Assembly: GCA_017547585.1 (NCBI GenBank)
Contig: JAFYPH010000047.1
Location: 1 to 45,151, forward strand
Source of the DNA: Bacteroidaceae bacterium
GTDB taxonomy: Bacteria > Bacteroidota > Bacteroidia > Bacteroidales > Bacteroidaceae
Length of the DNA: 45,151 nucleotides
Direction: 5' to 3'
Under the pieces are notes generated by a model. That model was not told where the DNA came from, made no database searches, and saw only the letters and a program-made list of their open reading frames with translations. The position numbers were made by a program, and so were the translations under genes. Below are positions 42,881-45,125 of the stretch, piece by piece. The first letter of the stretch is position 1; each line of letters begins with the position of its first letter.

Positions 42881-42912
42881 CTTGTTTCGTTGCCGAAATT
42901 ATATTACCTTTG
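42881..42912 (+). promoter_or_regulatory. Predicted promoter of the tRNA-Met gene
   Basis: A TTG element about 20 bases upstream of TACCTTTG (about 42905-42912) fits the Bacteroidetes -33/-7 layout. The small palindrome GTATTTC-ATG-GAAATAC lies between the -7 element and the tRNA. Confidence 0.6.
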
Positions 42913-42935
42913 CACCGTATTTCATGGAAATACTC

Positions 42936-43009
42936 GGGCTTTTAGCTCAGTTGGTTAGAGCAACAGACTCATAATCTGGAGGTCCTAGGTTCAAGCCCTA
43001 GATGGCCCA
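42936..43009 (+). tRNA. tRNA-Met (anticodon CAU), elongator type
   Basis: A 74-nt cloverleaf: acceptor starts GGGC and ends GCCCA, D-arm GCTC/GAGC, anticodon loop CTCATAA (CAU) and T-arm CTAGG/CCTAG. No initiator features (GGG/CCC anticodon stem) are present. Two weak spots exist: a T-T mismatch in the acceptor and an A-G pair at the top of the anticodon stem. CCA is not encoded. A CAU tRNA could also be tRNA-Ile2 with lysidine-modified C34; a specialised tRNA predictor would decide. Confidence 0.92.
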
Positions 43010-43013
43010 CGAA

Positions 43014-43081: not shown

Positions 43082-43125
43082 AAATGTAGCAATTCTTGCC
43101 GATATCGGCAAGAATTGCTACATTT
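43082..43125 (+). promoter_or_regulatory. Perfect 44-bp palindrome enclosing the Fic promoter
   Basis: Every base from 43082 to 43103 is complementary to its partner from 43125 back to 43104, centred on GATATC. The Fic promoter lies inside it: TTG at 43096-43098, a 20-base spacer and TACATTTG at 43119-43126. Transcription would start near 43133, so the palindrome itself is not transcribed with Fic and acts as DNA, probably as an operator. Part of the arm, TTGCCGATA (43096-43104), recurs as a half-site at 43148-43156, 52 bases away (about five helical turns). The protein that binds is inferred to be Fic's own N-terminal domain. Confidence 0.7.
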
Positions 43126-43168
43126 GTGCACGAACAATGAATATAATTTGCCGATAGGATAAAATAGT

Positions 43169-44056
43169 ATGGAGTATATTTCGGTATCTGAGTTTGCGAA
43201 AAAGCATGGAGCTTCTGAAAGAACTGTGCGTAATTATTGCGCCGTGGGTAAGATTGAAGGTGCTATAATGGTTGGTAAGACGTGGAACATCCCACACGAT
43301 GCCACCCTGCCTGTACCTAATGCCAAACGAGGCAAAATTATGCCTCTGCTGAATCTCCTTCGCCGAGAAAAAGAGGCGAGGCTTAAGGGGGGCATTTATC
43401 ATCGCACACAAATTGACCTTACATACAATTCCAATCATATAGAGGGTAGTTGTCTCACACACGAGCAAACACGCTTCATCTTTGAGACAAACACCATAGG
43501 CCCCGAAGGCGAATGTATACTTATAGACGATATTATAGAAACCACCAATCACTTTCGTTGTATCGATTTTATCATTGACAATGCCGAGAAACGACTCACC
43601 GAAGGGCTTATAAAAGAGCTGCACAAGATGCTTAAAAACGGTACGTCCGACAGCAATAAGGCGTGGTTTGCGGTGGGTGATTACAAACGTCTTCCCAATG
43701 AGGTTGGCGGCAATGAAACTACGTCGCCGGCAGATGTTCGTCGCGAGATTCAATTGTTGCTCAGAGGGTATAATTCCATAACTCACAAGTCGTTAGAGGA
43801 TATTGTGGACTTTCATTACCGCTTCGAGGCTATTCATCCATTCCAAGATGGTAATGGCCGCGTGGGCAGACTTGTGATGTTCAAAGAGTGCCTTGCCCAT
43901 GGCTATGTGCCTTTTATTATTTCCGACGAGCTGAAGATGTTCTATTATCGCGGCCTGCAAGAGTGGAATAGAGTCCGTGGATATCTGCTTGATACTTGTC
44001 TCTCTGCTCAGGATAACTACAAAGCATTACTTGATTATTTCAAGGTGAAATATTAA
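43169..44056 (+). CDS. Fic-domain protein with N-terminal helix-turn-helix
   Basis: A 295-residue protein. Residues 1-50 are an excisionase/MerR-like DNA-binding domain (SVSEFAKKHGASERTVRNYC with a following wing). Residues 85-240 form a class II Fic domain: the inhibitory helix motif (S/T)xxxE(G/N) is seen as SNHIEG (Ser88, Glu92, Gly93) and the catalytic loop as HPFQDGNGRVGR (His223 to Arg234). Fic enzymes usually transfer AMP from ATP to a hydroxyl of a target protein, and the helix keeps them off. There is no separate antitoxin ORF. The gene lies between an intact and a decayed tRNA-Met copy. Confidence 0.92.
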   Translation: MEYISVSEFAKKHGASERTVRNYCAVGKIEGAIMVGKTWNIPHDATLPVPNAKRGKIMPLLNLLRREKEARLKGGIYHRTQIDLTYNSNHIEGSCLTHEQTRFIFETNTIGPEGECILIDDIIETTNHFRCIDFIIDNAEKRLTEGLIKELHKMLKNGTSDSNKAWFAVGDYKRLPNEVGGNETTSPADVRREIQLLLRGYNSITHKSLEDIVDFHYRFEAIHPFQDGNGRVGRLVMFKECLAHGYVPFIISDELKMFYYRGLQEWNRVRGYLLDTCLSAQDNYKALLDYFKVKY

Positions 44057-44079: not shown

Positions 44080-44094
44080 TGAAATACGGTGCAA
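44080..44094. repeat. 15-bp inverted copy of the tRNA promoter region
   Basis: TGAAATACGGTGCAA is the exact reverse complement of 42910-42924, which lies between the -7 element and the start of the tRNA. Together the two copies bracket the tRNA and Fic segment. Confidence 0.75.
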
Positions 44095-44160
44095 CTTTTA
44101 GCTTGGTTAGAATTATAAGGTCATAATTTGCAGTTCTTAAGGCAAGTCTCGGATGACACA
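44092..44160 (+). pseudogene. Degenerate copy of the tRNA-Met gene
   Basis: The stretch aligns end to end with the tRNA at 42936-43010. CTTTTAGCT, TGGTTAGA and TCATAAT are identical; the anticodon CAT is kept. A 4-base loss removes part of the D-loop, a single-base gap lies in the T-arm, and most other changes are C-to-T or G-to-A. None of the D, anticodon or T stems can form fully, so it is not a working tRNA. It is most simply a decayed tandem duplicate. Confidence 0.72.
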
Positions 44161-44228: not shown

Positions 44229-45125
44229 TTATTGGTAAAGAGTTCGGTATTGCACCGGACTCTTTCCTTTTAGTCTCAGTTTTATTCTATCATTGTTGTA
44301 GTAATGGATATACTTCTTAAGTTCCAGTTTAAAGTGATCCATATCCTTGAACTCCTGCAAATATAGCAATTCGGATTTCATTATTCCAAAGAAGTTCTCC
44401 ATCATAGCATTGTCAAGACAGTTGCCTTTACGTGACATACTCTGTATAATACCATTGCGTTTGAGTGCCAATTGGTACTGCATGTGCTGATAATGCCAGC
44501 CCTGGTCGGAGTGCATTACAAGGCCTTTCTGTGGCTTTACTTTTTTTACAGCACTGTTCACCATATCCATTACCATGCGCAAGTCTGGACTATCGGAGAT
44601 TGTGTAGGAGATTATTTCTCCATTATACATATCAAGTATCGGTGAGAGATAAGCCTTTCTATCGCCTATCTTGAACTCCGTAACATCCGTTGCCCATTTA
44701 CGGTTAGGTGCTTGTGTACTAAAGTCACGCTCCAATACATTTGCTGCCACGCGACCTATCTCGCCTTTGTATGAACGGTATCTTACTCTGCGCACTACTG
44801 ATTTGATGTACATCTCCTGCATCAGTTTCTGCACTGTCTTGTGGTTGATTTCGTACCCTTCATTGCGCAACTGGGCGCATACACGGCGATAGCCATAGCG
44901 TTTATGGTGCTGCGCAAATATCTCGCTTATACGCTTGCGTACTGCCTGATACTTGTCTGTAGGTTCAAGACGTGCTATATTGTAATAGTAGGTTGAGCGT
45001 GCCATCTTTATGCGTCTTAGCATAAAGTGCAGGTCGTGTCCTTCTTGCCTTAGTTCTCGGATTGCCCCCGCCCAATCGCGCGTAGACGGGCTTCTCTCTC
45101 CTCGACTAAGGCTTTGACTTTTTTT
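44229..45125 (-). CDS. IS3-family transposase OrfB (frameshift-expressed)
   Basis: The DDE integrase part of the transposase, carrying out strand transfer. The catalytic residues appear as WATDVTEF (first Asp), MHSDQGWHY (second Asp) and DNAMMENFFGIMKSE (Glu). An N-terminal HTH_21-like region includes YGYRRVCAQLRNEGY. The first ATG in frame is at 45023 (264 residues), but the frame is open to the A7 slip site at 45119-45125 and beyond, so the product is probably the OrfAB fusion made by a -1 shift. No stop codons or frame breaks are visible. Confidence 0.94.
   Translation of the reverse strand, partial: KKSQSLSRGERSPSTRDWAGAIRELRQEGHDLHFMLRRIKMARSTYYYNIARLEPTDKYQAVRKRISEIFAQHHKRYGYRRVCAQLRNEGYEINHKTVQKLMQEMYIKSVVRRVRYRSYKGEIGRVAANVLERDFSTQAPNRKWATDVTEFKIGDRKAYLSPILDMYNGEIISYTISDSPDLRMVMDMVNSAVKKVKPQKGLVMHSDQGWHYQHMQYQLALKRNGIIQSMSRKGNCLDNAMMENFFGIMKSELLYLQEFKDMDHFKLELKKYIHYYNNDRIKLRLKGKSPVQYRTLYQ

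What the first reader, a model, noticed from the sequence alone, without database searches (positions are those of the whole stretch)
43082..44056. Self-contained Fic switch: enzyme with its own DNA-binding domain and a promoter enclosed in a perfect palindrome
Seen: the whole -33/-7 promoter (TTG, 20-base spacer, TACATTTG) lies in a perfect 44-bp palindrome, and TTGCCGATA from its arm recurs 52 bases downstream near the ATG. The encoded protein has an N-terminal helix-turn-helix, an inhibitory helix (Ser88, Glu92, Gly93) and an intact HPFxxGNGRxxR loop. Known: class II Fic proteins are AMPylases held off by that helix. Inference: the protein represses its own promoter, and the state of the Fic domain may change DNA binding, so one polypeptide could be toxin, antitoxin and regulator.
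Basis: partly seen in the sequence, partly recalled or inferred. Interest (0 to 1): 0.78.

Follow-up and report, generated by a model that had tools for sequence, protein, structure and literature searches.

The report
Self-regulating Fic enzyme with conserved two-part operator
A lone bacterial AMP-transferring (Fic) enzyme carries its own DNA-binding head, and its relatives keep almost the same two-part landing site at their own promoters, so the protein very probably switches its own gene off and may thereby also control its own enzyme activity.

Summary
A perfect 44-bp palindrome (43082-43125) encloses the promoter of a solitary class II Fic gene (43169-44056) with an N-terminal HTH; only the last G of the -7 element lies outside. 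Comparison makes it a real regulatory element. Its 16-bp core TTGCCGN4CGGCAA (O1) is exact in 85 of 97 distinct HTH-Fic loci (94 of 97 within one mismatch), against 3 of 722 random stretches within one mismatch. None of 16 cellular and 4 viral HTH-less relatives has it within two mismatches. The repeat TTGCCGATA (O2) is a second element: exact in 79 of 93 loci at 51-54 bp from O1 (SD 0.7, five helical turns), while its distance to the ATG varies from 8 to 38. Viral HTH-Fic genes with sigma-70-like promoters keep the O1-O2 geometry although the promoter lies over O2. A second HTH-Fic subfamily has a related half-site. No partner gene is conserved. Best reading: the protein binds O1-O2 as a phased oligomer and represses itself. 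Coupling of DNA binding to Fic activity has precedent elsewhere but is untested here. Autorepression by a Fic protein is known (CccR); this architecture and operator appear new.

The parts
43082..43125 (.). perfect 44-bp palindrome around the promoter
   Evidence: 22-nt arms, 100% complementary, 0 nt between
43096..43111 (.). O1: conserved operator core TTGCCGATATCGGCAA (dyad)
   Evidence: TTGCCGN4CGGCAA exact in 85 of 97 loci, 94 of 97 within one mismatch; 0 of 16 HTH-less within two mismatches
43096..43098 (+). -33 element (TTG), first bases of O1
   Evidence: sequence; distance to the -7 element conserved
43119..43126 (+). -7 element TACATTTG of Bacteroidota type
   Evidence: TAnnTTTG in 87 of 93 loci; 23 bases after the O1 start in 76 of those 87
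43148..43156 (+). O2: second operator half-site TTGCCGATA, 52 bp (five turns) from the O1 start
   Evidence: exact in 79 of 93 loci at 51-54 bp; within one mismatch in 85 of 93 at 49-56 bp
43169..44056 (+). HTH-Fic gene, 295 aa
   Evidence: (Pfam Fic E 1.5e-15)
43169..43306 (+). N-terminal winged HTH, residues 1-46, excisionase/BldC-like, recognition helix SERTVRNYC
43394..43447 (+). inhibitory helix, residues 76-93, with S88, E92, G93
   Evidence: invariant in 47 of 47 sequences; helix 76-91 in the model
43835..43870 (+). catalytic Fic loop HPFQDGNGRVGR, residues 223-234

Best explanation
This is a solitary class II Fic enzyme fused to an N-terminal excisionase/BldC-like winged HTH that recognises the half-site TTGCCGATA. 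Two subunits bind the inverted pair in O1 and a further subunit binds O2, five helical turns away on the same face. The resulting nucleoprotein complex blocks the promoter, so the protein represses its own gene. Shown by comparison: O1 and O2 are conserved, they go with the HTH, their mutual spacing is fixed, and this holds when the promoter lies elsewhere. Inferred: direct binding, oligomer geometry and the sign of regulation. Inferred by analogy only: on the operator the protein is in the dimeric, AMPylation-off (or deAMPylating) state of class II Fic enzymes, and it becomes an active AMPylase when free and dilute.
For: O1 exact in 85 of 97 loci against 1 of 722 random stretches of the same loci. 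No O1 within 2 mismatches in 16 cellular and 4 viral HTH-less relatives, some of them near copies; Fisher p about 9e-17 for 94/97 against 0/16, not corrected for kinship. O1-O2 spacing SD 0.68 against O2-ATG SD 5.3 in 79 loci. Operator-first search: O1-N32-42-O2 in 66 of 399 family genomes, reversed control pattern none; of 59 non-redundant places read, 46 directly precede a full or near-full HTH-Fic ORF and 2 more a truncated one. Nine viral loci (several near copies) with -35/-10-like promoters keep O1 (0-2 mismatches) and O2 (0-1 mismatch) at 52-53 bp with the promoter over O2 (promoters read by eye). A subfamily with recognition helix S[ADES]RRVRxLC has half-sites TTrTTCC(GATAA) instead. 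No conserved neighbour gene. Precedent for autorepression: CccR, PMC9755527. Precedents for coupling: CbFic2, PMC10628234, and FICD, PMC6826200.
Against: No binding or expression data. The link with the HTH rests on few evolutionary events: the tree needs 2 changes of HTH state and its well-supported branches alone force only 1. 14 of 93 loci lack an exact O2 and 6 of 93 have 3 or more mismatches there. Five O1-O2 pairs stand without a recognisable Fic gene next to them, as do one more (L150) and two of 7 viral places. MerR-type activators also bind the promoter spacer, so activation is not excluded. Enzyme activity, toxicity and oligomeric state are untested.
Confidence: 0.8

Rival explanations
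1. The HTH-Fic protein binds O1-O2 but activates its promoter (MerR-like, by acting on DNA in the -33/-7 spacer), giving positive feedback.
For: O1 fills the promoter spacer; the HTH is weakly MerR/excisionase-like.
Against: In the viral loci with sigma-70-like promoters the half-site O2, not the dyad, lies in the spacer, so no one activation geometry fits both. The -33 to -7 spacing was not compared with promoters lacking the operator. The known Fic autoregulator CccR represses.
Confidence: 0.1
2. Another host or mobile-element factor binds O1-O2; the HTH of the Fic protein has a different role, such as targeting the enzyme to DNA.
For: Five O1-O2 pairs have no Fic gene beside them; of ten genomes checked, mostly ones with such or decayed places, five hold no Fic match at E 1e-15 or better.
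Against: The element is missing from the HTH-less relatives examined, goes with the gene into viral contigs with another promoter type, has no conserved neighbour gene, and differs together with the recognition helix in the second subfamily. Other places show decayed or part-deleted fic genes behind the operator (L190, L212, L213), so the orphans may be relics.
Confidence: 0.07
3. The palindrome acts as a nucleic-acid hairpin (terminator, mRNA structure or recombination site) rather than a protein-binding site.
For: Perfect inverted repeat; arms beyond the core are symmetric more often than shuffled pairs.
Against: O1 overlaps the promoter upstream of the inferred transcription start. The 16-bp core is conserved in sequence, not only in pairing, and 48 of 91 loci have no symmetry beyond it. 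O2 has no partner arm in most loci yet keeps a fixed distance.
Confidence: 0.03

Closest known systems
CccR of Yersinia pseudotuberculosis (Fic + HTH autorepressor; PMC9755527, abstract and section 10 part 1 read)
   Same: one polypeptide with a Fic enzyme and a DNA-binding domain; represses its own promoter through inverted repeats near -35/-10; needs dimerisation
   Different: CccR has a C-terminal HTH and two 10-bp repeats 26 bp apart, and is a secreted effector; here the HTH is N-terminal, O1 is a compact 16-bp dyad and a third half-site lies five turns away
CbFic2 and SoFic (Fic with C-terminal wHTH; PMC10628234, abstract and passages seen)
   Same: Fic enzyme with HTH; CbFic2 is proposed to dimerise and deAMPylate on DNA
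   Different: C-terminal wHTH; random DNA was used for CbFic2 and no specific site is given in the passages seen, and DNA binding of SoFic is called undemonstrated there
CdFic (PDB 4X2C/D/E), FICD and BtFic (3CUC)
   Different: matches cover about residues 55-294 of this protein; the CdFic chains have 193-227 modelled residues and no part aligned to the HTH
PADLOC PDC-S04, candidate single-gene phage defence family
   Same: residues 60-293 match at E 2e-110
   Different: the best model (244 positions) covers only the HTH-less part; I saw no functional test of it (listing only)

Membership tests
Class II Fic AMPylase | HPFx[D/E]GNGRxxR catalytic loop | tested here: met
   H223-R234; H, F, D, G, N, G and last R invariant in 47 of 47 sequences, P224 and R231 in at least 90%
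Class II Fic AMPylase | inhibitory motif (S/T)xxxE(G/N) in a helix N-terminal to the Fic core | tested here: met
   S88, E92, G93 invariant in 47 of 47; helix 76-91 in the model
Class II Fic AMPylase | AMP transfer or removal | not testable with these tools
   no biochemical data
CccR/SoFic/CbFic2 type (Fic with C-terminal wHTH) | wHTH C-terminal to the Fic domain | tested here: not met
   HTH is residues 1-46; the protein ends with the helix 270-290 of the Fic part
CccR/SoFic/CbFic2 type (Fic with C-terminal wHTH) | binds and represses its own promoter | tested here: inconclusive
   strong comparative support for self-binding; no binding data
FicTA or Phd-Doc toxin-antitoxin pair | separate adjacent antitoxin gene | tested here: not met
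   88 downstream and 85 upstream neighbours (ORFs of 60 aa or more) fall into clusters of at most 3
MerR family regulator | Pfam MerR/HTH_17 domain above cut-off | tested here: not met
   14.5 and 14.7 bits against cut-offs of 28.2 and 27
Excisionase/BldC-like winged HTH | fold similarity of residues 1-59 | tested here: inconclusive
   Xis and BldC chains hold the first six Foldseek ranks, probability 0.97-1.0, TM 0.60-0.68, but E 0.065 or worse
PDC-S04 | profile match | tested here: met
   E 2.1e-110 over residues 60-293

The most novel reading that the evidence does not exclude
The operator DNA is itself the antitoxin. O1-O2 assembles the class II Fic protein into a phased oligomer that is both repressor and AMPylation-off or deAMPylating enzyme. 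Free, dilute monomers are the active AMPylase, so damage to or loss of the DNA carrying the operator (phage attack, loss of the element) frees the enzyme with no separate antitoxin gene. The same one-gene design recurs in HTH subfamilies with changed operator words.
Probability: 0.12. Interest if true: 0.88.

Novelty: new variant of a known kind. Interest (0 to 1): 0.62.

Why it matters
For CbFic2, an HTH-bearing Fic protein, the authors used random DNA and ask for a specific site. Here is a family with an exact, widely conserved, phased operator and natural controls: HTH-less relatives, and a second subfamily with a changed half-site. It makes the open question of whether DNA binding sets the oligomeric and therefore enzymatic state of class II Fic enzymes directly testable, and it offers a one-gene alternative to toxin-antitoxin pairs in Bacteroidales and in phages.

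Tried and rejected
O1 as a genome-wide regulon signal: the own genome has three TTGCCGN4CGGCAA places; the other two lie inside long ORFs. In 393 genomes of the order the 16-mer TTGCCGNTATCGGCAA alone hits 37, and many of its places have no Fic next to them, six of them (L133, L142, L152, L157, L161, L169) in one recurrent context that looks like coding sequence. So the palindrome alone is not specific; with O2 it mostly marks HTH-Fic.

Selection on the outer arms: arms beyond the core are more symmetric than shuffled pairs (mean 2.42 against 1.03; 0 of 5000 shuffles as high), but they turn over between close relatives (L003 against L004) and kinship is not corrected. I take a palindrome-perfecting mutation process as likelier than function.

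A tRNA attachment site: tRNA-Met lies upstream here, but of 60 relatives' loci scanned only 7 hold any tRNA; one (L036) has it within 200 bp upstream and one (L049, tRNA-Asp) about 60 bp downstream of the gene. Not a general site.

A partner regulator or antitoxin gene: no conserved neighbour.

Fold search: excisionase/BldC similarity is by topology only (E 0.065 or worse). The second look spans mainly residues 57-293, so it says nothing on the HTH.

Literature: searches in the held open-access library; I saw titles and abstract starts of at most the 20 best each (of 2 to 316 papers found) and none was on an operator of an N-terminal-HTH Fic protein. Passages of PMC5651007 (Campylobacter fetus Fic network) hold no 'HTH'. 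Subscription papers are not held; for the CdFic paper (Dedic 2016) I saw only citations of it.

Full report
What is there. The window ends in a solitary Fic gene, 43169-44056 (295 aa), behind a tRNA-Met (42936-43010) and before an oppositely oriented transposase-like ORF (44229-45023, integrase core domains). Upstream lies a perfect 44-bp palindrome, 43082-43125. The Bacteroidota-type promoter TTG-N20-TACATTTG sits in it, except that the last G (43126) is one base outside (the promoter consensus is recalled). TTGCCGATA from its left half recurs at 43148. Four copies of this 9-mer in the window compare with 0.29 expected and none of 100 shuffles reaching four.

Test 1, O1 in relatives. With the window that made 110 loci, 97 of them distinct in the last 80 nt before the start. 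TTGCCGN4CGGCAA lies within 300 bp upstream, exact in 85, one mismatch in 9, two in 2, three in 1. In 722 random 300-bp stretches of the same loci it was exact in 1 and had one mismatch in 2, two in 21, three in 139.

Test 2, natural control. Sixteen relatives (52-69% identity) begin after the HTH. None has O1 within two mismatches in the 400 bp upstream (best 3-5), although several show ordinary -7-type promoters by eye. Four HTH-less viral relatives, three of them near copies, also lack it (best 3-5). Fisher p is 9e-17 for 94/97 against 0/16, without correction for kinship. A tree of 53 rows (34 with HTH, 18 without, one outgroup) needs 2 changes of HTH state (bootstrap 2-3); its well-supported branches alone force only 1, and it warns of long branches. 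The number of independent events is therefore small.

Test 3, O2 and geometry. Of the 94 loci within one mismatch, 93 have enough sequence (L025 dropped). TAnnTTTG follows in 87 of 93 and lies 23 bases after the O1 start in 76 of those 87. TTGCCGATA is present exactly in 79 of 93 at 51-54 bases from the O1 start (mean 52.70, SD 0.68), while its distance to the start codon ranges from 8 to 38 (SD 5.3). With one mismatch allowed, 85 of 93 have it at 49-56 bases, against 20 of 558 control windows; 6 of 93 have three or more mismatches there. 52.5 bp is five turns of B-DNA, so O2 repeats the left half of O1 on the same face.

Test 4, operator first. The pattern O1-N32-42-O2 occurs in 66 of 399 genomes of the family with no match of the reversed control pattern, and in 2 of 395 genomes drawn from the phylum: this one and one of the same class but another family. 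Of the 71 places listed I read 63 (two of them twice, 65 readings), 59 non-redundant; the 8 left out are HTH-Fic loci already found by protein. In 46 an HTH-Fic ORF follows at once (three of them cut by a contig end after residue 256-260); 2 more are truncated (one by a contig end, one fic with its 5' part missing). The other 11 are 3 with fic remnants (L172, L190, L212), 3 reverse readings at a site already counted (L172, L194, L216), and 5 O1-O2 pairs with no Fic beside them (L205, L207, L211, L214, L218). Of ten genomes checked with the protein, five had no match at E 1e-15 (G620, G717, G757, G123, G064), two only distant Fic proteins, one a fragment, and two an intact relative. I read the orphans as relics of gene loss; this is not shown.

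Test 5, another promoter type. A viral-contig search gave nine full-length HTH-Fic loci of 61-64% identity and one more (L260). L244-L247 are near copies, and L239, L241 and L242 are 96% identical or more. By eye their promoters look like sigma-70 promoters. In nine measured loci (L239-L245, L247, L260) O1 is present with 0-2 mismatches and O2 with 0-1, always 52-53 bp apart, but here -35/-10 bracket O2 and O1 lies upstream. The unit O1-52-O2 thus follows the protein, not the promoter, which also argues against an mRNA role for O2. An operator-first scan of viral contigs found 7 stretches; 5 lead into HTH-Fic (three on contigs already known, one at a contig end), 2 do not (L253, L257).

Test 6, a second subfamily. 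HTH-Fic proteins with the helix S[ADES]RRVRxLC (33-34% identical to the window's; from two Bacteroidales family genomes, another of the order, a Streptococcus phage, Leptotrichia, Mycoplasmopsis and viral contigs) carry TTrTTCC half-sites, followed by GATAA in most copies outside Bacteroidales. In four such loci three direct copies nearest the gene have the outer two 42-43 bp apart (L252, L268, L272, L273). In L118 and L231 the last two copies are 43 bp apart (positions read from the output). This is about four turns. The set is small: 9 distinct upstreams, three of them near copies (L268, L269, L271), and in one (L235) the script misplaced the start and found none; its sites are visible. There was no random control for this subfamily.

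Mechanism. The simplest account is binding of the protein's own HTH to O1 as a dimer and to O2 through a further subunit, blocking the promoter. CccR, a Fic-HTH protein of another architecture, does repress its own promoter through inverted repeats near -35/-10 and needs dimerisation for it (PMC9755527, section 10 part 1 read); its authors found regulatory and toxic activities independent. For coupling: CbFic2 is proposed to switch from AMPylating monomer to deAMPylating dimer on DNA (PMC10628234, abstract and passages), and FICD, CdFic and BtFic share a dimer interface; monomeric FICD AMPylates more (PMC6826200, passages). These are analogies; nothing here tests activity.

Setting. No neighbour gene is conserved: 88 downstream and 85 upstream neighbours form clusters of at most three; 20 of 90 loci have a same-strand ORF of 60 aa or more starting within 60 bp. 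The gene behaves as a mobile single-gene unit. Its Fic part matches PADLOC's candidate defence family PDC-S04; five papers in the held library name that family (listing only).

Verdict. It is a new variant of the known kind 'Fic protein that regulates itself'.

Noticed in passing
window 42910-42924 and 44080-44094; 42939-42987 and 44095-44139: The Fic cassette is flanked by a 15-bp exact inverted repeat (TTGCACCGTATTTCA) and by a tRNA-Met gene and a degenerate (about 70%) tRNA-like copy, as if the cassette had been inserted at or duplicated from the tRNA leader.
   Followed up: partly
L036 3775-3849: A Prevotella relative also has its HTH-Fic gene directly behind a tRNA-Met.
   Followed up: partly
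L205, L207, L211, L214, L218 (also L150): Complete O1-O2 operators stand without a Fic gene next to them; in L214 the operator with its -7 promoter now precedes an unrelated signal-peptide-like ORF.
   Followed up: partly
L118 1198-1938 and 2015-2947: Tandem pair: an HTH-less Fic gene followed directly by an HTH-Fic gene of the RRVR subfamily.
   Followed up: no
L273: In Mycoplasmopsis cynos the HTH-Fic gene lies directly before a type I restriction-modification M subunit gene.
   Followed up: no
L001, L004, L067, L075, L095: Five loci (this one included) have perfect symmetry extending 11-16 bp beyond the core with differing arm sequences, where shuffled flanks give 0.2 with 8 or more; a palindrome-perfecting mutation process may act here.
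   Followed up: partly
L172 (G064): In one family genome O2 is itself a full O1 palindrome, 53 bp from the first, before a decayed HTH-Fic start.
   Followed up: no
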